Assembly (NCBI RefSeq): GCF_003687455.1
Contig: NZ_PHOA01000017.1
Location: 1 to 32,031 of the forward strand
Length of the DNA: 32,031 bases
DNA from: Kocuria tytonicola
GTDB taxonomy: Bacteria; Actinomycetota; Actinomycetes; Actinomycetales; Micrococcaceae
Reading direction: 5' to 3'
Shown here: positions 1-10,522 of the stretch, piece after piece
Layout of the letters: every line of letters begins with the position of its first letter
How positions within the stretch are numbered: position 1 is the first letter of the stretch
Notes under the pieces: generated by a model
Database searches by the model: none
What the model was told of the DNA's origin: nothing
Seen by the model: only the letters and a program-made list of their open reading frames with translations
Position numbers and translations under genes: made by a program

Positions 1-1287
1 GTGGTGCTGCACGTGGTGGAGGCCTTCGGAGGGGGTGTGGCGGCGGCCGTGCGGGACTACGCCCGCGCCACCCCGGAGTGCGAGCACCACCTGCTGTGCC
101 ACCTGCGCCCCGAGGCCGTGAATCTCGAGGCTAACTGGGACGCTGATTTTGCATCGGTCCGTTCGCTGCCCGGGGGACACCTGGCCAACGTCAAGGCCAC
201 CCGCTGGGCCATCCGCGCGGTGAAACCGGACGTCATCCACTCGCACTCGAGCTACGCCGGCGTGTACGCACGCACGGCCGTGGGACACCTGCCGCGCCGC
301 CGCAACGACACCCTCTCACCGCTGAACGCTCCCGCTGCGCCCACCACGCGCGCCGAGCGGCAGGGGGATCTCCTGGCGGGTGCCGAGCTGCCTGCCGCAC
401 CGGAGGAGCGGACCACCGTGCGGGGCGCCGGACGCCGCCCGGGCCGTTCCGTTCCGGCACCGCTGGGGAGGGCGGTGCGCGAGCTGACGAACAACAAGTA
501 CCTGGACCTCTCGCTGACCCGGATCAAGCAGGTGTACACGCCGCACGCGTGGTCCTTCTCGCGGCTGGACCGCTCCCGTCTGACCCGGCTGGGCTACTGG
601 CTGCTCGAGGGGGCACTGGCCGCCCGCACGGACGTGCTCGCCGGGTGCTCCAAGGCGGAGAACAACGTGGCGCACTGGGGGCCGATCGCACCCCGCACGG
701 TGTACGTGCCCAACATCGCCCGCCCGTGCGGTGAGCGCAAGCGCCGTCCCGCGCCGGGCGAACCGCTCGTGCTCGCCGGCGCGGGGCGTCTGGCGGCGCA
801 GAAGGACCCCGTGTTCTTCGCCCAGGCGGTGGACGCCATCCGCGCCGCCGGCCATGACGTGCGCCCGCTGTGGATCGGTGGCGGGGACGAGGGCGTGGAG
901 CGGCTGCTGCGCGAGCACGGTGTGGAGGTCACGGGCTGGGTGGGCCACGAGGAGGTGCGCCAGCACCTCGCACGGGCGGACGTCTACCTGCACACGGCGC
1001 GCTGGGAGGGCTTTCCCATCACGGTGCTGGAGGCGGCGCTCAACGACATCCCCGTGATCGTGCGGCGCATCAGGGTGTTCGACGACGCAGGGCTGCCGGT
1101 CGTCGTCGACTCGCCGCAGGAGGTGGCGCGGCACTGGGAGGAGATCACGGACGAGCGGGCGCGGGACGCCGTGTCCGCATGGGCCCGCCGGGCGCTGTGG
1201 GAGAACTGCCGTGAGGTGCAGCGCCAGCGGCTGGGAGAGATCTACGGCATCCGCGTGCCGCTCGCGGAGCGCACCCTCGCGCGGTGA
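1..1287 (+). CDS. GT4-family glycosyltransferase (5' end at window edge)
   Basis: This is a retaining GT-B glycosyltransferase, expected to move a sugar from a nucleotide donor onto a lipid-linked glycan on the cytoplasmic side of the membrane. The N-terminus VLHVVEAFGGGV is the usual first strand and glycine loop of GT4 enzymes. The motif HSHSSYAG near residue 80 follows. The C-terminal donor domain has GAGRLAAQKDP and the EX7E pair at E336 and E344 (EGFPITVLE). Residues about 98-160 form a Pro/Ala/Arg-rich insertion before YTPHAWSF, longer than usual. The first base of the window is a GTG in frame; family members often carry one or two more residues, so the true start may lie just upstream. 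The gene is followed after 34 bp by the hydrolase-fold gene and then the flippase, apparently one operon. The acceptor and donor sugars cannot be read from sequence. Confidence 0.85.
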   Translation: MVLHVVEAFGGGVAAAVRDYARATPECEHHLLCHLRPEAVNLEANWDADFASVRSLPGGHLANVKATRWAIRAVKPDVIHSHSSYAGVYARTAVGHLPRRRNDTLSPLNAPAAPTTRAERQGDLLAGAELPAAPEERTTVRGAGRRPGRSVPAPLGRAVRELTNNKYLDLSLTRIKQVYTPHAWSFSRLDRSRLTRLGYWLLEGALAARTDVLAGCSKAENNVAHWGPIAPRTVYVPNIARPCGERKRRPAPGEPLVLAGAGRLAAQKDPVFFAQAVDAIRAAGHDVRPLWIGGGDEGVERLLREHGVEVTGWVGHEEVRQHLARADVYLHTARWEGFPITVLEAALNDIPVIVRRIRVFDDAGLPVVVDSPQEVARHWEEITDERARDAVSAWARRALWENCREVQRQRLGEIYGIRVPLAERTLAR

Positions 1288-1321: not shown

Positions 1322-3283
1322 ATGAACACCATCGGGACGCCCCCGGCGCGGACGGAGCGCGGGGCGAGCGCCGCACCGGCGGGCACCGCGGGCGCGGGCA
1401 TGTGGACGGGCACGGGGAGCAGCGCCACCTTCACGTGGCTGCACACGCCGGAGAACGGGCGGGCGCGGGGGCTCGTGGTGCTGGCACCGCCCGCGGGGCG
1501 CGAGCACGTCCAGGGCTACCGGGCCCTGCGGCAGCTGGCCATGCTCCTCACGGGCGCGGGCTACTGCGTGGCACGGGTCAGCTACCGGGGCGTGGGCGAC
1601 TCGCACGCGCTGCGCCCGGGGGACGACCTGCTCCAGGAGTGGCTGCGGAACGTGCTGGACGCCGCCCAGCAAGCACGGGAGGTCTGCGGCATCGAGGAGT
1701 TGCCCGTCTACGGCATCGGCTACCGGGTGGGCGCCGGTCTGCTGAGCATGCTCTCGGAGCACTTCGACCACGTGATCGCGTGGGAACCGGTGAGCGGAAA
1801 GGCCTTCGCCAACCAGTGGTCGCGCCTGCGCCGCGCGACCCTGCCGGAGATCCCCACCGGGGACGGGGTGGATCTCATGGGGCTGTGGCTCACCGACGCG
1901 CAGGCCGAGCAGCTCGCGCGCATCCCGGACCCGCGACGGCTGGCCCAGCTGCCCCCCGGGGTGGAGGTGTACCGGGAGGCGGACCAGCCGCGTGCCAAGG
2001 TCATGTACGGCGTGGAGTCCTTGGACGTCCGGGTGCACTACGACGTCCTGGAGGACCTGCTGCGGAGGCTGCCCCGTCCGGGACTGGTGCCCTTCACGGG
2101 TGCGGGCAGGGGCCCCGCGCGCAACGAGTTCCTCGCGGGGGACGGGGTGCTGTGCGCGGAGGAGGTCGTGGCCGTGGACCCCGCGGGCTACCCGGGCATC
2201 CTCACGGGCCCCGTGGCGGGACAGGTCCCCGACCGGACCGGTGGCCGGGGGCCCGCGGCGTCGCCGGGTGCCGCGGGTCGCAGGGGTGCCGAGTCGAGCC
2301 CCGAGGTCACGGCGGCGGCCACGGCGGACGCCACCGCACAGGCTGCTGGCGGGGCCATCGCCCCGTGGCCGGGCAAACCCGTCACGTTCTTCGCTCCCGG
2401 GGCGTCCGAGCCCCGGGACGGCTCCGGGCTGTGGCCCGAGACCGCACGCCGGCTCGCGGGCCGCGGCGTGGTCAGTCTCCGCGCGGACCGCGACGGCGCC
2501 GGGGACCGGGCCCTGCTGTGGTCCGACCGGGACCCGAACCCCTACCGCTACCTCAACGCCCAGGCGCTGCGCGAGCAGGCCCGCTGGCTCGGGGAGCGCT
2601 TCCGCACGGACGTGGTGGCCACGGTGCTGTGCTCCGGCGCGTGGGCCACGCTGCGGGCCACGCGCGAGCCCGCGGGGCTGCCCGCCCAGGCCCTGATCCT
2701 CATCAACCAGAACGAGTGGCGGATGCACCAGGGCTTCTTCGACGGGCTGCGCCCGAGCTACGACGGTGACGCCAAGCTGCGCGCGAAGAGCACCTCGGCC
2801 GCAGCCGACGCCGCACCGTCGGGTGGTCGGGCGGCGGCACCGGCGCACGGGGGCGCCGGGAGCGTGCACGGGGCCTGCCGCTCCCGGTGCGCGGACGCCG
2901 CCCGCGGTGTCCTGTCCGACGCCGGCACATGGGCCACGGCCCGACTGGCCGAGGGCAAGCAGGTCGCCTCGCACGCGCTGCGCCACCGCACCCCGGAGCC
3001 CGTGTGGAACCTCATGGCCCGCAACCCGTCCGCGTCCATCCCGGACCACGTGCTGGAGCGTGCCAGCCACGGCCGCCGCGTGGTGCTCCTGGTGGGCCCG
3101 CAGGACGAGGAGCGCTACCGGGAGACCACCGCAGACCGCGCCGTGTCCCGGTTGCAGCGCCGCGGACGGCAGATCGCGGAGCGCTACGTCCCCGCCGTGG
3201 ACCACTCCGTCCTCTCGCGCACCGCGCGCAACCAGATCGCCCGCCAGCTCGACGAGCTGTTCGACCAGTGGAAGGCTCAGTAG
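1322..3283 (+). CDS. tandem alpha/beta-hydrolase-fold protein of the polysaccharide operon
   Basis: The 653-residue protein appears to contain two alpha/beta-hydrolase-like domains. The first, about residues 25-300, has GLVVLAPPAGREHVQGYR, then RVSYRGVGDS, and at the nucleophile elbow GYRVG (residues 133-137), so Arg135 stands where Ser is expected. The second, about 355-650, has VTFFAPGASEP, RADRDGAGD, an elbow reading VLCSG with Cys437 in the nucleophile place, and a late VDHS with His628, matching the usual position of the catalytic His. Linkers near 305-355 and 487-530 are low-complexity. The ATG at 1322 follows a good GGGGAG ribosome site and gives the best start. It lies between a glycosyltransferase and a flippase, with 7 bp to the latter, so a role in glycan modification or assembly is inferred. 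Exosortase-associated hydrolases also have Arg at the elbow, as I recall. No substrate can be named. Confidence 0.75.
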   Translation: MNTIGTPPARTERGASAAPAGTAGAGMWTGTGSSATFTWLHTPENGRARGLVVLAPPAGREHVQGYRALRQLAMLLTGAGYCVARVSYRGVGDSHALRPGDDLLQEWLRNVLDAAQQAREVCGIEELPVYGIGYRVGAGLLSMLSEHFDHVIAWEPVSGKAFANQWSRLRRATLPEIPTGDGVDLMGLWLTDAQAEQLARIPDPRRLAQLPPGVEVYREADQPRAKVMYGVESLDVRVHYDVLEDLLRRLPRPGLVPFTGAGRGPARNEFLAGDGVLCAEEVVAVDPAGYPGILTGPVAGQVPDRTGGRGPAASPGAAGRRGAESSPEVTAAATADATAQAAGGAIAPWPGKPVTFFAPGASEPRDGSGLWPETARRLAGRGVVSLRADRDGAGDRALLWSDRDPNPYRYLNAQALREQARWLGERFRTDVVATVLCSGAWATLRATREPAGLPAQALILINQNEWRMHQGFFDGLRPSYDGDAKLRAKSTSAAADAAPSGGRAAAPAHGGAGSVHGACRSRCADAARGVLSDAGTWATARLAEGKQVASHALRHRTPEPVWNLMARNPSASIPDHVLERASHGRRVVLLVGPQDEERYRETTADRAVSRLQRRGRQIAERYVPAVDHSVLSRTARNQIARQLDELFDQWKAQ

Positions 3284-3290
3284 CCCCGTC

Positions 3291-4829
3291 ATGACAGACA
3301 CGCCCGCCGTGCGCACACCCCCGCCCGAGACCGAGGCCTCCCGTGTGGGGACCAACATCCTGTGGAACTACGTCTCCGGGTTCACGAGCGTCTTCGGACT
3401 GCTCCTGCTCTACCCCTTCGCCATCGCGATCGTGGGGGCGGAGTCCTACGGGCTGTGGGTGATTGCGTTCAGCGCCATCCAGCTGCTCACCATGTCCGAC
3501 TTCGGGCTCGGCACGGGCATCGTGCGCACCCTCACGGACATCCCGGACGACGCCGCCCACGCCCGGCGGCGCCAGAGTTTCGTGGCCGTGGCCATCGGCG
3601 TCTTCCTGGTGCTCGCGGTGGTGCTCACGGGCCTGTACTTCGTGTTCTTCCCGCTCTACCTCACCACGGTGGACGTGCCCGAGCGGGACCAGCACGCCGT
3701 GGTTCCCCTGCTGCTCGCCGCGGGGTTCACGCTGTTCTTCTCGGTGCTCGGGCGCGCGTGCAACTCCGTGCTGTGGGCCCTCAACCGCCCGGACGTGGAG
3801 CGCAAGGCGGCCGTGGTGGCCATCCTGGGACGTGCCGCCGGGTACGCCCTGCTCATCCCGTTCCAGGGCGGACTGATCGCCCTGGTGCTCGTGGAGTGCG
3901 TCTCCCTGCTGCTGCCGCCCGCGGTGTGCCTGTGGGCGGTGCACCGCCGCTTCGGGCTGGCGCGCCCGCTGCCCGGTGCCTGGCGTGAGCAGGGCAGGCC
4001 CCTGCTGCGGATGTCCTCCGTGCTGTCCATCGGCTCGCTGTCCCTCCTGGGGGTGTACCAGCTGCCGCTGTTCATCGTGGGGCCCACCCTGGGGCTGCAT
4101 GCCGCCACCGCCTTCGGGGCGCTGATCCGCGTGTTCCAGAGTGCCCGTCTGGTGATCAGCTGGATCGCCATGCCGTTCGCCTACCCCATCAAGAAGTCGC
4201 AGGGCGGCGAGGCGGCGGAGCACATCCGCGTGGCCATGACGGTGTCCCTGCTGGTGGGGCTCATGATCAGCATCCCGCTGCTCGCGATCCCCACGGAACT
4301 GCTGAGCGTGTGGCTCGGCCCCGCCATGGCCTTCGCGGCCCCCGCCCTGGCCATGGTGGTCCTCGGTGTGCTGGGGGAGTCCCTCGGGCAGGTGCCGAAC
4401 CTGGTGATGACGCTGCGCGGCAGTCCCCTCGTGGCCTCGCTGATCAGCCTGGGGATTCTCGTGGTCACCCTGCCCGCCGTGTGGTTCGCCGCGCAGACCG
4501 GGAACCTGGAGGTGGTGATGGCGGCGTCCACTGCGCCGCTGCTGCTGGCCGTCCCCGTTCAGCTCGTGTTCAGCGAGCGTGCGGAGTCCAGCCGTGCCGG
4601 AGCGGCGGATCTGCGGACCTGGGTCCTCATGCTGCTCGCCGCAGCCGCCGGTGCAGTGGTGTTCGTCCTGGCGGGCCGGGTCCTGCCCGACGTCCTGACC
4701 ATCGGGGTGTGCGGCGCGGCACTCGGGGCGGTGTTCCTGGCGGCGTTCCGCCGGATCCGGCGCCGCGACCGGGAGTTGAACAGCGCCCGGTCGGCGGACG
4801 CTCAGGACGCCGTGGTGAGCTCCTCGTAG
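3291..4829 (+). CDS. Wzx/PST-type polysaccharide flippase
   Basis: A 512-residue integral membrane protein of the oligosaccharide flippase (MOP superfamily) type, expected to translocate lipid-linked oligosaccharide units across the cytoplasmic membrane. The start of the membrane region, TNILWNYVSGFTSVFGLLLL, and the segment SYGLWVIAFSAIQLLTMSDF fit the first helices of Wzx-like proteins; the motif DFGLGTGIVR resembles the conserved DxGLG element. Twelve or more hydrophobic segments run to about residue 490, followed by a charged Arg-rich tail. The start ATG lies 7 bp after the stop of the hydrolase-fold gene; GGAAGG sits rather far upstream, so translational coupling is possible. Its last 28 bp overlap the 3' end of a convergent glycosyltransferase gene, leaving no room for a separate terminator. 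The transported glycan is unknown. Confidence 0.85.
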   Translation: MTDTPAVRTPPPETEASRVGTNILWNYVSGFTSVFGLLLLYPFAIAIVGAESYGLWVIAFSAIQLLTMSDFGLGTGIVRTLTDIPDDAAHARRRQSFVAVAIGVFLVLAVVLTGLYFVFFPLYLTTVDVPERDQHAVVPLLLAAGFTLFFSVLGRACNSVLWALNRPDVERKAAVVAILGRAAGYALLIPFQGGLIALVLVECVSLLLPPAVCLWAVHRRFGLARPLPGAWREQGRPLLRMSSVLSIGSLSLLGVYQLPLFIVGPTLGLHAATAFGALIRVFQSARLVISWIAMPFAYPIKKSQGGEAAEHIRVAMTVSLLVGLMISIPLLAIPTELLSVWLGPAMAFAAPALAMVVLGVLGESLGQVPNLVMTLRGSPLVASLISLGILVVTLPAVWFAAQTGNLEVVMAASTAPLLLAVPVQLVFSERAESSRAGAADLRTWVLMLLAAAAGAVVFVLAGRVLPDVLTIGVCGAALGAVFLAAFRRIRRRDRELNSARSADAQDAVVSSS

Positions 4830-5887
4830 AGCTCGCGGTAGCGGCGCGCGGTCACCCGGGCGTCGAAGTCCGCACGGGCGCGCTCCCAGCTGCGGTGCCG
4901 CAGGCCCTCTCGCAGCGTCGGGGTGAGGTCCAGGAACCGGGTCAGTGCGGCGCCCAGGGCCTCTGGGTCGCGGGGCGGGACCAGCGTGAAGGGCTCCACG
5001 GACAGCACCCGGGTGTCCCCGGTGTCCGTGGTGATCACGGGAACGCCCTCGCTCAGCGCCTCGATGCCGGCCATGGGCAGGGCCTCCTCGCTGCTGGAGA
5101 ACACCATGGCGTGGGATGCCCGGATGAGGGAGCGGACGTCCGAGACGGACCCCAGCAGCTCCACGGCGTCGGTCAGGCCAAGCCGTGCCAGCTCGTCCGT
5201 GAGCACGCGGTTGTGCGGATCCACCCCGTGGCCGGCGCACACCAGGCGCGCCAGGGGGTGCCGCTCCCGGGTCTGGGCGAACGCCCGGAACAGGGTGGGG
5301 TGGTCCTTGGCGGGCACGCGGCGCCCCAGATGCAGCAGGACGGGGTCCCCGGGGGGCTCGGGAGCGGGGGCCGCTGCAGTGGTGGTGCCGTTGGGAACCA
5401 CCAGGATCCGCTCCCCGGGGAAGCGGTATCCGAAGTCCACCGCGAAGTCCCGTGCGGTGGGGGAGCAGGCCACCACCGCGTCCAGGCGGGAGGAGAAGAC
5501 GGCGGCGAGCCGCCAGACCACGCCCGCCACGCGGCTCGACGCCAGGTTCAGGCTCGAGTGCAGGGTGGTGACCTTCGCGGCGCCGTGCGGGGTCAGTTCG
5601 TTGACGAGGTCCGACTGCTGGAGGTGGGAGTGCACCACGTCGATCCGGTGCTCCCGCACGAGCCGGCGCACGGCACGGGCGGCCCTCACCGGAAGCAGGT
5701 CCCTGCGGGTCATGTGCGCGTACGTTGTGCTCGTGGCCGCGGCCTCGAGCCGCGGGGAGAGGGCTCCCGGGCCGAGCAGCACGAGCAGGTGCGCCTCGTC
5801 TTCGGGCCGCCGGGTGAGCAGCAGCTGCTCGATGAGCGTCTGGGCGCCGCCGGTCTCGGCGTCGTTGACGATGTGGAGGACGCGCAC
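4802..5887 (-). CDS. GT4-family glycosyltransferase
   Basis: A 361-residue GT-B retaining glycosyltransferase. The N-terminus VRVLHIVNDAETGGAQTLIE is the standard GT4 opening with a glycine-rich loop; HSHLQQSD lies near residue 87. The C-terminal domain shows LHLGRRVPAKDHP near 185-197 and the EX7E pair E268/E276 (EALPMAGIE). The open frame extends further upstream, but the GTG at 5887 is chosen because the family N-terminus begins here and AGAAAGG precedes it at a suitable distance; the upstream extension is Arg/Pro-rich and unlike the family. It is the last gene of the minus-strand polysaccharide run, separated from the polymerase-like gene by 130 bp. It likely adds one sugar to the lipid-linked repeat unit; sugar specificity is not readable. 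Confidence 0.88.
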   Translation of the reverse strand: MRVLHIVNDAETGGAQTLIEQLLLTRRPEDEAHLLVLLGPGALSPRLEAAATSTTYAHMTRRDLLPVRAARAVRRLVREHRIDVVHSHLQQSDLVNELTPHGAAKVTTLHSSLNLASSRVAGVVWRLAAVFSSRLDAVVACSPTARDFAVDFGYRFPGERILVVPNGTTTAAAPAPEPPGDPVLLHLGRRVPAKDHPTLFRAFAQTRERHPLARLVCAGHGVDPHNRVLTDELARLGLTDAVELLGSVSDVRSLIRASHAMVFSSSEEALPMAGIEALSEGVPVITTDTGDTRVLSVEPFTLVPPRDPEALGAALTRFLDLTPTLREGLRHRSWERARADFDARVTARRYRELYEELTTAS

Positions 5888-6017
5888 GGTGCGGGCCTTT
5901 CTGCGGAGGTGGACGGTGCATGGTGTGGCGATGCCGGCGCCCGCGGGCACGACAGCCCTGTCCCTCGTGGGCGCAGCCCTCGTTGGCAGGAGCCGCGTGG
6001 CGTGGCGCCGGAGTGGA

Positions 6018-7376
6018 TCAGGTGCCCGGCCCGGCGGCGTCGTCCGCACCGGCGCCCGCGCTGCCGGCAGCCGCGGGGCGGGAGAGCTCCAGCCCCAGGC
6101 ACACCCCGGCGATGCCCCACACCCAGAACGCGGAGTCATAGCTCGTGGTGGCCCCGGCAACGACGAGCCACACCACCAGCGTGCACCCGCCGAGCCACAG
6201 GGGGTTGCGCCCGCCGGAGCGCACGCACAGCACCGCCATGACCAGGACCAGGGCGAGCCCGAAGACCATGCCGCTCTCCAGCAGGACGCGGCCGATCACG
6301 GAGTAGATGTCCGGCAGCGGGTTGTAGTGCTGCAGGTCCCCCAGGGGCATGCGCCCGCTGAGGAACAGCTCGTTGGACCGGCCCCGCCCCACGCCCCACA
6401 GGAACGTGGTGGGATCCGAGACCAGGTGGCGCACCGAGGCCGTGATCGAGGAGCCGCGGTCCGCCCAGGACCAGTTGAAGGACTCCTTGCGGTCCCGCAG
6501 GACGTCCAGCCCCACGTAGGCCGCTCCGGCGAGCCCCAGGGGCACCAGCAGCACCGCGGCCCAGGCCCGGCGCACGGCGTAGGGGGCGATCGCGGCGATC
6601 AGCACCACGCCGAGCACAACCACCGCGGCTCCCGAGCCGGAGACCGCCACGGCCCAGAGCACGAGGGCCATGGCCAGGACGTCCCGCGGGGTCATGCGGC
6701 GGCCGTGGTGGCGCAGCACGACCACCAGGGCCATGGCCATCAGGGACAGCGAGCCCACCATGAAGGAGGTCTCGGGGAAGAGCCCGAAGGGCCGCCGCAC
6801 GTAGGTCAGGAAGGTCTCGCTGAAGTCGGAGACGTTCGCGTAGCCGGGGATGGTGTAGAGGCCCTCGAAGGGGATCACGCCCACCACGTCGAAGAACACG
6901 TACTTCTGCACGAGGGTGTAGGCCGCGCTGAGCAGCATGGTCCAGCTCAGCCACGAGATGGCGCGCGGCCCGAGGAAGAGGATGGCGGCGGCCGCGCCGG
7001 CCAGGGGCAGCGTGAACACGAGCCACGTGATGGATCCCGCGACCTGCACGGGGACGGGGCTCAGGAACATCCGCACGGCCGAGGCCGCGAAGGGGACGAC
7101 TCCCACGAGCAGCGCGGTCCACATCACCGGCATGTGCCGGGCGCAGCGCAGGATCAGCAGGACGCAGACCACGCTGGACAGCGGCAGGTTGGTGTTGGAG
7201 CCCAGTGGCACGGCCGCGTAGGGCAGGGCCGAGAGCACGATCAGCGCACCGGACAGTGCGCGGTCCAGGGCCGTTCCCGGGGTGACGAGCGCCGCGCCGC
7301 GGGAACGGGTGGACGCGCGGCGGGGGCCGGTGCCGCTCCGGCCGGCCAGCAGGCCCGGCTGCGCCACGGTGCTCAC
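6018..7376 (-). CDS. O-antigen ligase/polymerase-like membrane protein
   Basis: A 452-residue polytopic membrane protein with roughly ten or eleven hydrophobic segments, of the O-antigen ligase/Wzy type that joins lipid-linked repeat units at the outer face of the membrane. The large hydrophilic stretch between helices, about residues 300-380, contains RGSSITASVRHL, the pattern GVGRGRSN and a conserved-looking LPDIYSVIGRVLLESG, which fits the periplasmic/extracellular loop of this superfamily. The GTG start overlaps the stop codon of the upstream glycosyltransferase by four bases (GTGA), so translation is probably coupled. The first 35 residues are hydrophilic. Context supports polymerase rather than ligase, because the next genes upstream encode a transferase and a chain-length protein. 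Sequence alone does not separate the two functions. Confidence 0.75.
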   Translation of the reverse strand: MSTVAQPGLLAGRSGTGPRRASTRSRGAALVTPGTALDRALSGALIVLSALPYAAVPLGSNTNLPLSSVVCVLLILRCARHMPVMWTALLVGVVPFAASAVRMFLSPVPVQVAGSITWLVFTLPLAGAAAAILFLGPRAISWLSWTMLLSAAYTLVQKYVFFDVVGVIPFEGLYTIPGYANVSDFSETFLTYVRRPFGLFPETSFMVGSLSLMAMALVVVLRHHGRRMTPRDVLAMALVLWAVAVSGSGAAVVVLGVVLIAAIAPYAVRRAWAAVLLVPLGLAGAAYVGLDVLRDRKESFNWSWADRGSSITASVRHLVSDPTTFLWGVGRGRSNELFLSGRMPLGDLQHYNPLPDIYSVIGRVLLESGMVFGLALVLVMAVLCVRSGGRNPLWLGGCTLVVWLVVAGATTSYDSAFWVWGIAGVCLGLELSRPAAAGSAGAGADDAAGPGT

Positions 7377-8560
7377 GCCCGCTCCGTCCCGAGCACGGCG
7401 GCCACGGAGGGCCCCCAGTCCGCGTGCACGTCGGCGCCCGGGGTGGCGCCCCCCGGCGCGGACGGGGGCGCGCCGCGGGTGCGGACGGCGTCGTCGAACG
7501 CGTCCCGCAGGGCGGCGCCGAACGCCGCGGCGTCGTGGACGTCCGCGGCGCGGAAGCCGGCGTAGTCCCCGGCCTGGGCGCGCAGGGAGGCGAGGTCCGA
7601 GGCCACCACGGGGGTGCCCGCCCCCACGGCCTTGGCCAGGACGCCGGAGTGGGCGTCGAAGTGGGTGTAGGGCAGCACGATCACCGCGGCGTCCTTCACG
7701 TAGCCCGCGAACTCGTCCCGGGAGAGGAAGCGGTCCACCACGTCCACGGACGGGTGGCGGCGGGCGAGCGCGGCGAGCTCCGCCGCCAGCTCGGGGCTCT
7801 CCGCCTTGCCGCGCACGAGCAGGGGCACACCGGCCTCGCCCGCGGCCACCACGGCAAGCTCGATGCCCTTGTTGGCGCGCACCTCGCCGATGCAGAGCGC
7901 ATAGGGCCCGGTCGCTGCGGCGGCCGGCGCGGCGGGGGCCCCCGGGTCCAGGCGGGAAGACACGGGCAGGTCCACCGCGGTGACGGGCCGGGTGGTGTAG
8001 CCGCGGATGATCTCCGCCTGCTCGCGGCCGTGGGTGACCACCCGGTCCGCGCGGCGGGCGCAGGCCCGGTCCAGCCAGAGCAGGACGCGCTCCCGGAGCC
8101 CCGCGGAGCCCAGGTCGAAGTGCGGCTGCGCGTTGTGCACGAACACCGCGGTGCGCTGCGCGCGGCGCGCCCGCAGCACGGCGGGGAGGGGGTACTTGGT
8201 GGAGTCCAGGGCGAGCACGGCGTCGTGGCTCGCGCGGGCGGCCACCGCGCGCACGGCCAGGTGCTCGCGCACGAGGTCCAGCACCTGCAGACCGGCCCGC
8301 AGCGCCCTGCCGGGGGCGGAGCGCGGCACCCGGGTGCGCCGGGGCGGCACGGTCTCCACCACGCGCACCGGGTGCTCCGCCGCCCAGCCGAGGTACTCGC
8401 GGGCCCCGGGGCGCGAGACGAGCGAGACCGCGGCGACGTCCGGGCTCGCGTCGAGGGCGAGCGCGAGGTCCGCGGCATGCTCCAGCTGCCCGCCGTACTC
8501 CGTGGGGCACACGACCACGATGTCCCGGGGGCACCCCGGCAGGCCGGACTCAGAGCTCAT
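7373..8560 (-). CDS. GT4-like glycosyltransferase
   Basis: A 395-residue protein with GT-B layout. The N-terminal part has IVVVCPTEYGGQLEHAADLA, a glycine loop typical of GT4 proteins, then DAVLALDSTKYPLP and VFVHNAQPHFD. The C-terminal half has CIGEVRANKGIELAV, the phosphate-binding loop region, and SGVLAKAVGAGTPVVASDLA. A clean EX7E pair is missing: the equivalent stretch reads FDAHSGVLAKAVG, so Asp and Ala replace the acidic residues. This may be a divergent donor site. The ATG at 8560 overlaps the end of the chain-length gene by 11 bp and the 3' end overlaps the polymerase-like gene by 4 bp, so the three genes form a tight operon. The acceptor is probably the growing lipid-linked repeat. 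Confidence 0.8.
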   Translation of the reverse strand: MSSESGLPGCPRDIVVVCPTEYGGQLEHAADLALALDASPDVAAVSLVSRPGAREYLGWAAEHPVRVVETVPPRRTRVPRSAPGRALRAGLQVLDLVREHLAVRAVAARASHDAVLALDSTKYPLPAVLRARRAQRTAVFVHNAQPHFDLGSAGLRERVLLWLDRACARRADRVVTHGREQAEIIRGYTTRPVTAVDLPVSSRLDPGAPAAPAAAATGPYALCIGEVRANKGIELAVVAAGEAGVPLLVRGKAESPELAAELAALARRHPSVDVVDRFLSRDEFAGYVKDAAVIVLPYTHFDAHSGVLAKAVGAGTPVVASDLASLRAQAGDYAGFRAADVHDAAAFGAALRDAFDDAVRTRGAPPSAPGGATPGADVHADWGPSVAAVLGTERA

Positions 8561-9239
8561 CGTCGGCGACGTGCTCGTGGGCCCGGGTGGTGGCCGCGTC
8601 CGCGCGGTGGGACGTCCGGCGCTCGGCGGCGGGGCGCCCGCGCCACAGCACCAGCAGCAGCCCCACGACCAGACCCACGAGCGCTCCGAGCGCGGTGTTG
8701 ACCGCCGCGGAGGGCCCGGCGGCCTTCTCCGGAACGGCGGCCCGCTGGACCACGTTGAGCTTGACGTTCGCCGGCTGCAGCCCGTCCTGGGACTGCGGGA
8801 CGGTCTCCAGTCCCCGGCTCACGCTCACGAGGCTCTCGGCGGTGGCCTGCGCCAGGTTCGCGGCCTGCTGCGCCGAGTCCCCCGTGGCGGTGATGGTGAT
8901 CATCGCGGTGTTCGGTTCGTTCGTGACCACCACGTTCTTGGCGGCGAGCTCCTCGGGCGTGTCCTCCAGGTGCAGGCGGTCCACCACGGGCTGCAGCACG
9001 GAGTTGGTGGTGGCCACCTTGGCGTAGGACCCGGCGCGGGCGACGGCGAACTGCTCGCCCATCTGCAGATCCGTCACCGAGCGCGGGTTGGCCACGTTCA
9101 CGAACACCTGCGACTGGGACTCGTAGGACTTCGGGACCACGAGGGTCGAGGCGATTCCGGCGAGCGCACCCACCACGGTGGCGAGCAGGACCAGCAGCCA
9201 CAGCTGCTTCAAGCATCGGACGTACTGACTCAAGTTCAT
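8550..9239 (-). CDS. Wzz/YveK-like chain-length determinant, without kinase domain
   Basis: A 229-residue membrane protein of the Wzz/YveK (polysaccharide co-polymerase) type. One membrane segment lies at about residues 13-35, directly after MNLSQYVRCLKQLW, and a second at about 178-199, with an extracytoplasmic domain between. The domain begins with the typical YESQSQVFVNV strand and contains PNTAMITITATGDSAQQAAN, close to the usual D-P-x-A-a-xxAN pattern; KAAGPSAAVN precedes the second helix. There is no Walker motif and no C-terminal Tyr cluster, so it is not a bacterial tyrosine kinase. The ATG at 9239 follows GGGGGAG, a strong ribosome site; the longer open frame upstream is rejected. 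It is the first gene of the minus-strand run and should control chain length of the glycan. Confidence 0.85.
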   Translation of the reverse strand: MNLSQYVRCLKQLWLLVLLATVVGALAGIASTLVVPKSYESQSQVFVNVANPRSVTDLQMGEQFAVARAGSYAKVATTNSVLQPVVDRLHLEDTPEELAAKNVVVTNEPNTAMITITATGDSAQQAANLAQATAESLVSVSRGLETVPQSQDGLQPANVKLNVVQRAAVPEKAAGPSAAVNTALGALVGLVVGLLLVLWRGRPAAERRTSHRADAATTRAHEHVADDEL

Positions 9240-9324
9240 GTTTCTCCCCCTCGGCCCCGGTGCACGGCGCGGCGCGCTCGGGTGCACACAGGGGTCCCCA
9301 GATCCCCATCGTGGTTGCACCAGA

Positions 9325-9330
9325 ACTCTA
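9325..9330 (-). promoter_or_regulatory. possible -10 box for the minus-strand polysaccharide run
   Basis: TAGAGT on the minus strand lies about 86 bp before the chain-length gene. No convincing -35 hexamer is seen at 16 to 18 bp. It is offered because TAGNNT boxes recur before other genes in this window. Confidence 0.3.
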
Positions 9331-9429
9331 GCCAGCTTCCCGGGCCGGGACCGCCGGAAATGGTGTGTTCGGGACAAACGTGCCCCCTTGTGTGGACGGA
9401 TTCGGGCGGGTGGGGCCGCCCGGTTTTCC

Positions 9430-9435
9430 TAGACT
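9430..9435 (+). promoter_or_regulatory. possible -10 box for the GT2 gene
   Basis: TAGACT lies 49 bp before the GT2 start codon within the divergent intergenic region 9240-9484. The -35 region is weak. A leader of about 40 bases with a GGGGGG ribosome site would result. Confidence 0.35.
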
Positions 9436-9484
9436 TGTGCGGGTCGCGGAGCACCGCGGCCAGGGGCCGAGCACGGGGGGCAGC

Positions 9485-10522
9485 ATGACACCGGACACCA
9501 CCACGGCAGGCACGGCGGACGCACCGCTCGTGAGCGTGGTCATCGCCGTCTACAACGGCCAGGAGCTCGTGGGGCAGGCGATCAGCAGCGTGCTGCGCCA
9601 GACCCACCCGCGGGTGGAGGTGTTGGTGGTGGACGACGGCTCCACCGACCACACGGCCGAGGTGCTCGCGGGCTACACCACCGTGGAGCGCCCGGGGCGC
9701 ACGGTGCAGGTCCTCACGCAGGAGAACGCGGGCTGCGGTGCCGCCCGCAACCGGGCCCTGGGGCTGGTCTCCGGGGACTTCATCACGTTCCTGGACGCGG
9801 ACGACGAGCTGCTGCCGCACCACCTGGAGACCCTGCTGGCCCGCTACGAGCAGCTGCAGGAGCACCCCGGGCGCGAGCGCACGGTGGTCTACGCCAACGG
9901 CTGGCTGTGCACCCCCTCCGGGATCAACCCCGAGCGAGTGCAGTACCGCGAGCGCATGCCGGGCCCGGAGGAGCAGCGCAGCGTGATCCTGGAGTACAAC
10001 ATCGGCAGCCTGTACGGGCTGTTCCCCCGCAGCTTCTTCGAGGAGGTGGGGGCCTTCGACCCCGAACAGGTGTTCGTGGAGGACTGGGAGCTGTGGCTGC
10101 GCGCCATCTACTCGGGCTGGCGCTTCGACCGCGTGGACCGGGTCACCTCCATCCTGGCGTGGTCCGGCGGGTCCATGCAGTCCCAGCGGGACCGGATGGC
10201 CGCGGGGGAGGAGATGGCGCTGCGCAAGACGCTGGTGCGCTTCGAGAAGGAGCTGAGCCCCGGGGAGCGGGACAAGCTGCTGCGGCGGCTGCGCGAGGGA
10301 TCCCCGCTCGCGGCGGCGTCGGACGCGGAGCAGGCCATGCGGGACGGACGCACCCAGGACGCCCGGCGCCTGCTCGAGACGGCCGCGGCCATGATGCCGA
10401 GCCAGCGGCGGGTCGCGCTCAAGGCGCGGATCGCCCGGCTGCCGGGCGGCATGCGGTGGCTCGTGTCCCGGCAGCGCGCGGTGGACGCCAGCGTGGGGTA
10501 CACGGACGCCATGCGTCGCTGA
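9485..10522 (+). CDS. GT2-family glycosyltransferase
   Basis: A 345-residue inverting GT-A glycosyltransferase. The N-terminal half has VSVVIAVYNGQE, VVDDGSTD with the nucleotide-binding DD at 50-51, NAGCGAARN, and the metal-binding FLDADDE (D104-x-D106). The probable catalytic-base region is VEDWELWLR at about 198-206, placed as in the ED motif of this family. After residue 250 comes a helical, charged tail. The ATG at 9485 follows GGGGGG and places the GT2 fold near the N-terminus; the longer frame is rejected. It diverges from the chain-length/polymerase run and probably works on the same glycan. It appears to be cytoplasmic, with no membrane helix. Confidence 0.9.
   Translation: MTPDTTTAGTADAPLVSVVIAVYNGQELVGQAISSVLRQTHPRVEVLVVDDGSTDHTAEVLAGYTTVERPGRTVQVLTQENAGCGAARNRALGLVSGDFITFLDADDELLPHHLETLLARYEQLQEHPGRERTVVYANGWLCTPSGINPERVQYRERMPGPEEQRSVILEYNIGSLYGLFPRSFFEEVGAFDPEQVFVEDWELWLRAIYSGWRFDRVDRVTSILAWSGGSMQSQRDRMAAGEEMALRKTLVRFEKELSPGERDKLLRRLREGSPLAAASDAEQAMRDGRTQDARRLLETAAAMMPSQRRVALKARIARLPGGMRWLVSRQRAVDASVGYTDAMRR

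What the first reader, a model, noticed from the sequence alone, without database searches (positions are those of the whole stretch)
1322..3283. Double alpha/beta-hydrolase-fold protein with Arg and Cys at the two nucleophile elbows
The first domain has GYRVG and the second VLCSG with a late VDHS. One half may be a dead or regulatory domain and the other a Cys-dependent hydrolase or transferase. Its place between a glycosyltransferase and the flippase suggests a glycan acylation, trimming or coupling step that standard Wzx/Wzy descriptions do not include.
Basis: partly seen in the sequence, partly recalled or inferred. Interest (0 to 1): 0.6.

Follow-up and report, generated by a model that had tools for sequence, protein, structure and literature searches.

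The report
Double hydrolase-fold protein for sugar polymers
A soluble two-domain protein from an exopolysaccharide gene cluster pairs a seemingly dead hydrolase-like half with a cysteine-bearing half, and many of its relatives sit beside machinery that loads amino acids onto carrier proteins, so it may attach such groups to sugar chains.

Summary
Window 1322-3283 encodes a 653-aa soluble protein with two alpha/beta-hydrolase-type domains, Arg135 and Cys437 at equivalent elbow positions, and a late His628. Profile alignment to solved hydrolases puts Cys437, Asp595 and His628 at catalytic positions. Both AlphaFold runs, limited to three sequences, were poor, so geometry is untested.

In 71 relatives (one eroded copy set aside) the C-domain Cys is 71/71; the N-domain elbow is Arg 54, Ser 9, Gly 7, Lys 1. 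Fused proteins and adjacent separate gene pairs both occur. They match, below cut-off, exosortase 'hydrolase 2/1' models, but no exosortase was detected in this genome.

The new point is context: many relatives accompany carrier-protein loading systems in polysaccharide loci (amino acid:carrier-protein ligase cassettes, AMP-ligase+ACP, or NRPS). In 5 of 6 sister Kocuria loci of the same clade the ligase cassette directly precedes the counterpart gene. In 99 genomes, all 19 with the ligase have the family, 3 have the family only. On plasmids the link is looser: 36 of 60 ligase records show a family match.

Best reading: Cys-dependent (amino)acyl transferase acting before the flippase (0.42); thioesterase or glycan esterase are rivals. 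Against: atypical elbow in its own clade, and a near-complete genome with the protein but no ligase. No activity is shown.

The parts
1322..3283 (+). 653-aa double alpha/beta-hydrolase-fold protein (P0001), no hydrophobic segment
1427..2107 (+). N-terminal pseudo-hydrolase domain (about residues 36-262)
   Evidence: partly folded in the AF2 model
1724..1726 (+). Arg135 codon, nucleophile-elbow position of the N-domain
2369..3280 (+). C-terminal Cys-type hydrolase-fold domain (about residues 350-653), with a low-complexity insert around residues 490-535
2630..2632 (+). Cys437 codon, candidate nucleophile
3104..3106 (+). Asp595 codon, candidate acid of the triad
3203..3205 (+). His628 codon, candidate catalytic His (in invariant Asp627-His628)
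1..1287 (+). GT4-type glycosyltransferase (starts at the contig edge; upstream unknown)
   Evidence: order conserved
3291..4829 (+). flippase-like membrane protein, about 13 hydrophobic segments; only a weak WZX_like match (E 0.001), no Pfam match
4802..6160 (-). GT4-type glycosyltransferase
6018..7565 (-). membrane protein with about 8 hydrophobic segments, no family match; candidate Wzy-type polymerase (inferred from place)
7373..8560 (-). GT-B glycosyltransferase
8550..9377 (-). Wzz-type chain-length protein
9365..10522 (+). GT2-type glycosyltransferase (start uncertain within the ORF)

Best explanation
P0001 is a soluble two-domain transfer enzyme of exopolysaccharide assembly. Shown by sequence: an N-terminal hydrolase-type domain without a catalytic nucleophile or conserved late His, joined to a C-terminal domain with conserved Cys, Asp and His, inside a GT/Wzx-like/Wzz locus; and a family link to systems that load an amino acid or acyl group onto a phosphopantetheine carrier protein. 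Inferred mechanism: Cys437, activated by His628 and Asp595, takes an aminoacyl or acyl group from a carrier-protein thioester by thioester exchange and passes it to a hydroxyl or amino group of the lipid-linked sugar unit on the cytosolic side, before the flippase moves it. The N-domain would be a docking half for the carrier protein or for a phosphate of the substrate, with Arg135 at the old nucleophile position as an anion-binding residue. In this genome the loading cassette (PPTase, ACP, acyl-CoA-dehydrogenase-like protein, amino acid:carrier-protein ligase, DUF1839, GH2) lies on another contig, between two paralogues of P0001.
For: Residues and fold. Own-genome cassette with two paralogues. 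Sister loci with the same gene order carry the cassette just before a tandem pair of hydrolases (L049, L051, L053, L054 with the cassette from ACP on; L052 visible from the ligase on because the stretch begins there), and the first hydrolase of the pair is in one 100/100 clade with P0001. Co-occurrence in 99 genomes, own included: family 22, ligase 19, both 19. In 396 actinobacterial genomes: 7 full-length fused, 6 strong ligase, 5 both. Plasmid records matched by P0001 at E<=1e-3: 19 of 20 carry the ligase, from 5 of 6 genera. The two fused-family genomes without the ligase have ACP, PPTase and adenylation ORFs nearby (L122, L123). Variovorax L136: an NRPS with no thioesterase domain ending in a carrier domain, then PPTase, Arg-type and Cys-type genes, then EPS genes. 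L110: the Arg-type domain is fused to an adenylation-end/carrier segment. Shinella L137: flippase, hydrolase, one unknown gene, ACP, AMP-ligase, PLP decarboxylase. Published: mutants of the B. pseudomallei bec EPS cluster, homologous to BCAM1334-BCAM1350, include an acyl-CoA dehydrogenase gene (becG) with a mild biofilm defect (0.84 in the table seen) (PMC5507470, passages); that becG is the cassette gene is my inference.
Against: No activity data. AF2 models poor. In P0001's clade 11 of 11 lack Gly at C437-2 and 6 of 11 also lack it at +2, unlike an ordinary active hydrolase. G024 (99% complete), G033 (99%) and G002 (79%) have the family but no ligase; G202 has a strong ligase but no family match. 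Of 60 listed plasmid records with the ligase, 24 show no family match with either query, and 25 of 60 records matched by the separate Cys-type query lack a listed ligase. No carrier partner was found in the fetched flanks of the window, L009, L010, L040, L042, L046, L048, L055, L063, L064, L072, L111, L114, L117 or L118. In Shinella, two Rhizobium proteins, L077 and L119 the N elbow is Gly, not Arg. DUF1839 was already predicted to be the amide-forming ligase of the cassette (PMC2922099, passage; that Atu2574 is the DUF1839 protein is my inference). The Bep polysaccharide, whose cluster includes the TIGR03100-like Bcam1334, was reported without an amino acid (PMC7084887, abstract and passages), though it was extracted in 0.3 M NaOH, which would remove esters. 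The co-occurrence tests ignore shared ancestry.
Confidence: 0.42

Rival explanations
1. Thioesterase or editing enzyme: the Cys domain hydrolyses mis-loaded or stalled carrier-protein thioesters so that the loading system keeps running (type II thioesterase-like).
For: Same carrier-protein linkage; hydrolase fold; an NRPS without a thioesterase domain is followed by the pair.
Against: No Pfam thioesterase model among the 10 families matched by 24 members; P0001's conserved neighbours are GT and flippase-like genes rather than loading genes; three copies in this genome seems many for editing.
Confidence: 0.25
2. Glycan esterase or trimming enzyme acting on the polymer or repeat unit, as was suggested for Bcam1334 by analogy with AlgL, PelA and PslG.
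For: PMC3584217, passages, proposes this for Bcam1334; hydrolase fold; polysaccharide locus.
Against: P0001 has no hydrophobic segment, so it is probably cytosolic, whereas the named trimming enzymes act outside the cytosol (recalled); it does not explain the carrier-protein partners.
Confidence: 0.15
3. A non-catalytic scaffold in which both halves are dead and the Cys is kept for another reason (for example a thioester-binding or structural role).
For: Atypical elbow in its own clade, 11 of 11 without Gly at -2; one eroded copy in G022 without Cys and His (L046).
Against: Cys, Asp-His and Trp441 at 43 of 43 and Cys at 71 of 71 is hard to explain without catalysis.
Confidence: 0.15

Closest known systems
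Exosortase A system-associated hydrolase 2 (TIGR03101) and hydrolase 1 (TIGR03100)
   Same: 24 of 24 family members match TIGR03101 and 22 of 24 TIGR03100 at E<=0.001; same order of an N-type and a C-type; in Shinella the gene stands near ACP, a TIGR03098-like ligase and a TIGR03099-like decarboxylase
   Different: P0001 scores 41.5 and 33.5 bits against cut-offs of 202.75 and 168.45; fused into one chain; no exosortase found in the genome; no member above the cut-offs was seen here, so their elbow motifs are unchecked
Amino acid:carrier-protein ligase cassette (SerRS-like ligase, ACP, acyl-CoA-dehydrogenase-like, DUF1839, GH2)
   Same: P0001's paralogues on C133 flank it, and clade counterparts lie directly next to it in 5 of 6 sister loci
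   Different: P0001 itself is on another contig; the passage of the 2010 note on this gene neighbourhood (PMC2922099) does not mention the hydrolase
Bcam1334 of the Burkholderia cenocepacia Bep exopolysaccharide cluster (PMC3584217, passages)
   Same: named as a TIGR03100-like hydrolase beside a glycosyltransferase and a flippase; a B. cenocepacia relative with Arg/Cys/His followed by a GT4 and a flippase was seen in L075
   Different: L075 was not shown to be the Bep locus, and Bcam1334's own sequence was not seen; L075 is 23% identical to P0001 in alignment A1
Cys-type alpha/beta hydrolases: dienelactone hydrolase, PHA synthase (recalled)
   Same: Cys as nucleophile in the same fold (recalled)
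   Different: only 3 of 24 members give a weak DLH match and no PHA synthase model was among the matches

Membership tests
alpha/beta hydrolase superfamily | nucleophile elbow after a strand, with acid and His late in the domain | tested here: met
   C-domain by profile to solved structures (the late stretch alone i-Evalue 0.013) and to the N-domain; N-domain related mainly over its first half and without catalytic residues
alpha/beta hydrolase superfamily | predicted closeness in space of Cys437, Asp595, His628 | tested here: inconclusive
   both AF2 models below pLDDT 40 on average
alpha/beta hydrolase superfamily | small residue (usually Gly) two before and two after the nucleophile | tested here: not met
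   Val435 at -2 (11 of 11 of its clade lack Gly there); Gly439 at +2 is present in P0001
TIGR03101/TIGR03100 exosortase-associated hydrolases | score above the curated cut-off | tested here: not met
   41.5 of 202.75 and 33.5 of 168.45 bits
TIGR03101/TIGR03100 exosortase-associated hydrolases | exosortase in the same genome | tested here: not met
   PF09721: 0 matches in the own genome; the control set rings in 1 of 14
amino acid:carrier-protein ligase cassette | gene adjacent to ACP and ligase | tested here: not met
   not met for P0001 itself; met for clade counterparts in 5 of 6 sister loci and for the paralogues on C133
NRPS/PKS thioesterase | match to the Pfam thioesterase model | tested here: not met
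   not among the 10 Pfam families matched by 24 members
carrier-protein-dependent acyltransferase (functional class) | acyl-Cys intermediate and transfer to a sugar acceptor | not testable with these tools
   needs biochemistry

The most novel reading that the evidence does not exclude
Pairs of a nucleophile-less (mostly Arg) and a Cys-type hydrolase-fold domain, fused or as neighbouring genes, are a general transfer module that moves aminoacyl, acyl or peptidyl groups from carrier proteins onto exopolysaccharide units, used with three different loading chemistries (SerRS-like aa:CP ligase, AMP-ligase plus ACP, NRPS). This would give the aminoacylated carrier proteins, whose role is described as unknown, a destination.
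Probability: 0.3. Interest if true: 0.8.

Novelty: new variant of a known kind. Interest (0 to 1): 0.6.

Why it matters
[quoted passage not shown] If this family is the enzyme that spends carrier-bound groups on polysaccharide, it gives that question a concrete, testable answer, adds a decorating step to Wzx/Wzy-type assembly, and explains a hydrolase pair so far named only by its neighbours.

Tried and rejected
Membership in the exosortase A system: rejected for this genome. Plain polysaccharide trimming: kept only as a rival. A fully canonical elbow: rejected for P0001's clade. Pfam matches for the flippase-like and the 6018-7565 ORFs and their relatives: none of use (one weak SUR7 match, E 0.015); their names rest on place, hydrophobic segments and one weak WZX_like match. 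Literature: in the held library I found no paper that ties the alpha/beta hydrolase to aa:CP ligases; Mocibob 2010 is not held and is known to me only from recall and citing passages. While checking I found that becN (glycoside hydrolase) has no homologue in the B. cenocepacia cluster according to the passage, so I dropped it as evidence for the cassette, and that 24 of 60 ligase plasmids show no family match; I lowered the best explanation from 0.45 to 0.42 and the novel case from 0.35 to 0.3 for that reason.

Rows dropped before the 43-sequence counts: L011 (K. atrinae copy broken in frame, as are its neighbouring GT genes), L050_11511 and L061 (partial), L046 (eroded copy lacking Cys and His); L065-L067 left out as duplicates of L009-L011. 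Of 31 genomes matched, 15 were opened and two (G000, G092) earlier; the other 14, with weak partial matches, were not examined. L124 was not in the partner search. Of 63 plasmid records with the ligase, the 60 listed were used, so ligase-positive counts are lower bounds.
Full report
WHAT IS THERE. Window 1322-3283 (+) encodes a 653-aa protein, P0001. The window is a whole contig (G000:C88) of a 2.6-Mb genome. The nearest named relatives are Kocuria: K. rhizophila TA68, K. carniphila and K. atrinae at 69, 57 and 61% identity of the best segment, so I take it to be a Kocuria (inference). The gene lies after a GT4 glycosyltransferase and before a flippase-like protein. Converging on these are a GT4, a membrane ORF of unknown family, a GT-B and a Wzz gene, followed by a GT2. 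P0001 has no hydrophobic segment (maximum 19-residue Kyte-Doolittle mean 1.11), while the flippase-like ORF has about 13.

TWO DOMAINS. P0001 alone matches no Pfam family at E<=0.01, but other family members match Hydrolase_4 (17 of 24), Abhydrolase_1 (9 of 24) and similar models. The N- and C-domain profiles align to each other with probability 97.1% (E 4.9e-11), pairing Arg135 with Cys437. The C-domain profile finds solved alpha/beta hydrolases (best E 3e-13); the printed alignment places Cys437 on the GxSxG serine, and a second, weaker stretch (i-Evalue 0.013) places Asp595 and His628 on an Asp and a His. Seven of the 27 matches are short-chain dehydrogenases at E about 0.004. The N-domain profile finds the same proteins, best over positions 1-121 of 229, a few others up to 182-191. 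That these positions form the triad in such hydrolases is established knowledge of the fold. Among 43 full-length relatives Cys437, Asp627, His628, Trp441 and Trp466 are 43/43 and Asp595 42/43; Arg135 is 33 Arg, 8 Ser, 2 Gly. In a 24-member alignment of fused proteins from Actinomycetota and Pseudomonadota the invariant columns are G80, R85, S94, P156, G159, C437, D627 and H628. No late His is invariant or nearly so in the N-domain. I read the N-domain of P0001 as a pseudo-hydrolase and the C-domain as the active half.

CAUTIONS ON THE ACTIVE HALF. Both AF2 jobs, held to three sequences, failed (mean pLDDT 39.5 and 37.3). In P0001's clade of 11 no member has Gly two residues before the Cys (Val 5, Leu 5, Phe 1), and six also have Ser instead of Gly two residues after it; the other 32 of the 43 have Gly at -2. 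The elbow is therefore unusual, even though Cys, Asp and His are kept. One eroded copy (L046, in G022) lacks the Cys and the His and was set aside before counting.

FAMILY SHAPE. The same pairing occurs as neighbouring separate genes: 9 actinobacterial loci (L110-L116, L118, L124) and one Variovorax plasmid (L136). With 43 Kocuria-family proteins, 18 further fused proteins and these 10 pairs, the Cys is 71/71 and the N elbow is Arg 54, Ser 9, Gly 7, Lys 1. All 24 fused members of A1 match NCBIfam TIGR03101 (exosortase-associated hydrolase 2) and 22 match TIGR03100 (hydrolase 1), P0001 far below the cut-offs. The own genome has no exosortase by PF09721. I saw no member above those cut-offs, so whether true exosortase members share the Arg/Cys elbows is untested.

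THE CARRIER-PROTEIN LINK. tblastn of P0001 in plasmids led to annotated loci where a double hydrolase follows acyl carrier protein, acyl-CoA dehydrogenase family protein, amino acid--[acyl-carrier-protein] ligase, DUF1839 and GH2/beta-mannosidase genes (Azospirillum L071, L078; Mycetohabitans L073, L076), or lies in a polysaccharide locus with ACP, ligase and PPTase (Tsukamurella L074). Of 20 records matched by P0001 at E<=1e-3, 19 carry a listed ligase (24 of 25 at 1e-2, 29 of 37 at 10); the 20 come from 6 genera, 5 of them positive. The link is not obligatory: a separate Cys-type query matched 60 records, 35 with a listed ligase, and of 60 listed ligase records 36 show a family match with either query and 24 none, among them Rhizobium, Caballeronia and Priestia records. 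In the own genome contig C133 holds PPTase, ACP, acyl-CoA-dehydrogenase-like, ligase, DUF1839 and GH2 genes between two P0001 paralogues. In 99 genomes, own included, the family is in 22, the ligase in 19, both in 19, neither in 77; within the genus (27 genomes) both 17, family only 2, neither 8. In 396 genomes of the phylum 7 have a full-length fused match (E<=2.7e-64), 6 a strong ligase (9 at E<=1e-20), 5 both; G202 has a strong ligase without the family. The Fisher values are small but ignore shared ancestry.

SAME LOCUS, WITH AND WITHOUT THE CASSETTE. The order GT4_1 - hydrolase - flippase-like / GT4_2 - membrane ORF - GT-B - Wzz / GT2 is kept in L009, L010, L011, L040, L042 and L048. In L049, L051, L053 and L054 the cassette stands between GT4_1 and a tandem pair of hydrolases, the rest being the same; L052 shows the same from the ligase on, its stretch beginning there. 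The first of the pair falls with P0001 in a clade of 11 with 100/100 support. So P0001 is the cassette-less version of a protein that sits next to the cassette in sister species. Exceptions: G024 (99% complete), G033 (99%) and G002 (79%) have the family but no ligase.

OTHER LOADING SYSTEMS. ACP, PPTase and adenylation ORFs lie near the fused proteins of L122 and L123, which lack the ligase. Of the 10 separate pairs, adenylation ORFs lie near five (L110, L112, L115, L116, L136), L113 has only a weak ACP match, L111, L114 and L118 show none, and L124 was not searched. None was found near the fused proteins of L117, L048, L055, L063, L064, L072, L046 or the P0001-type loci within the fetched stretch. 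In L110 the Arg-type domain is fused to the end of an adenylation domain and a carrier domain. In Variovorax L136 an NRPS with condensation, adenylation and two carrier domains and no thioesterase match ends in a carrier domain and is followed by PPTase, Arg-type gene, Cys-type gene and EPS genes. In Shinella L137 flippase, fused hydrolase (N elbow Gly), an unknown gene, ACP, a TIGR03098-like ligase (566.8 of 592.35 bits) and a TIGR03099-like decarboxylase (413.1 of 478.45) are neighbours, and the aa:CP cassette lies about 22 kb away.

PUBLISHED CONTEXT. A 2010 note in proof predicted that the SerRS-like system ligates an amino acid to an amino sugar of the cell surface, with the ORF like Atu2574 as ligase; the passage does not mention the hydrolase (PMC2922099, passages). 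[quoted passage not shown] DUF1839 is papain-like (PMC10318531, passages). The B. cenocepacia Bep cluster has Bcam1334, a TIGR03100-like hydrolase next to a GT and a flippase (PMC3584217, passages). In L075, from another B. cenocepacia strain, a relative is likewise followed by a GT4 and a flippase; I did not show that L075 is the Bep locus. In B. pseudomallei the bec cluster, homologous to BCAM1334-BCAM1350, includes an acyl-CoA dehydrogenase gene becG whose mutant was listed with reduced biofilm (0.84, the mildest of the seven chosen bec mutants), and becN, a glycoside hydrolase without a homologue in the B. cenocepacia cluster; becF was not picked up by that screen (PMC5507470, passages). 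The Bep repeat unit is reported without amino acids, after NaOH extraction (PMC7084887, abstract and passages).

MECHANISM, SHOWN AND INFERRED. Shown by sequence: anatomy, conservation, linkage. Inferred: Cys437 takes the group from the carrier thioester and gives it to the lipid-linked sugar unit before export (0.42); or water is the acceptor (thioesterase, 0.25); or the substrate is the glycan itself (0.15); or the protein is not catalytic (0.15). Arg135 as an anion-binding residue and the N-domain as docking half are inferences without a direct test.

VERDICT. The added value is the link to carrier-protein loading across three chemistries, which is strong within Kocuria and looser elsewhere. 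It is a new variant of a known kind: hydrolase-fold proteins known by name only, placed in a testable pathway. Interest 0.6.

Noticed in passing
L136 (Variovorax paradoxus VAI-C plasmid CP063167.1, 2394000-2420000): Two NRPS genes, the second ending in a carrier domain with no thioesterase match, sit at the head of an exopolysaccharide cluster; suggests a peptide-decorated polysaccharide.
   Followed up: partly
L110 5229-6581 (-) (G271:C20): Arg-type hydrolase domain fused behind an NRPS adenylation end and carrier domain, cut by the contig edge.
   Followed up: partly
L046 8970-10946 (G022): Eroded copy: the C-domain lost the Cys and the His, and no other gene of the window's exopolysaccharide set was found in this stretch.
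   Followed up: partly
L011 10001-11732 (Kocuria atrinae): Orthologue and neighbouring glycosyltransferases broken into several frames, possibly assembly error.
   Followed up: no
L007 10917-12242 (+) (own contig C133): A PF00756 esterase between the paralogue and the PPTase gene of the carrier-protein cassette.
   Followed up: no
second hydrolase copy of the C133-type cluster (for example L006 1096-3048, L041 3539-6037, L059 5036-6877): In this paralogue group the N-domain elbow is often Ser (8 of 43 rows in all) rather than Arg, so some N-domains may not be dead.
   Followed up: no
L079 (Priestia megaterium plasmid NZ_CP085444.1, 92000-120000): ACP, acyl-CoA dehydrogenase and aa:CP ligase genes near ComX, a sensor kinase, an ATP-grasp protein and a D-alanine--D-alanine ligase gene: a different use of the ligase, with only a single-domain alpha/beta hydrolase annotated.
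   Followed up: no
window 6018-7565 (-): Membrane ORF with about 8 hydrophobic segments, found again in L009, L010, L011, L040, L042, L048, L049 and L051-L054, no Pfam match; candidate polymerase of an undescribed family.
   Followed up: partly
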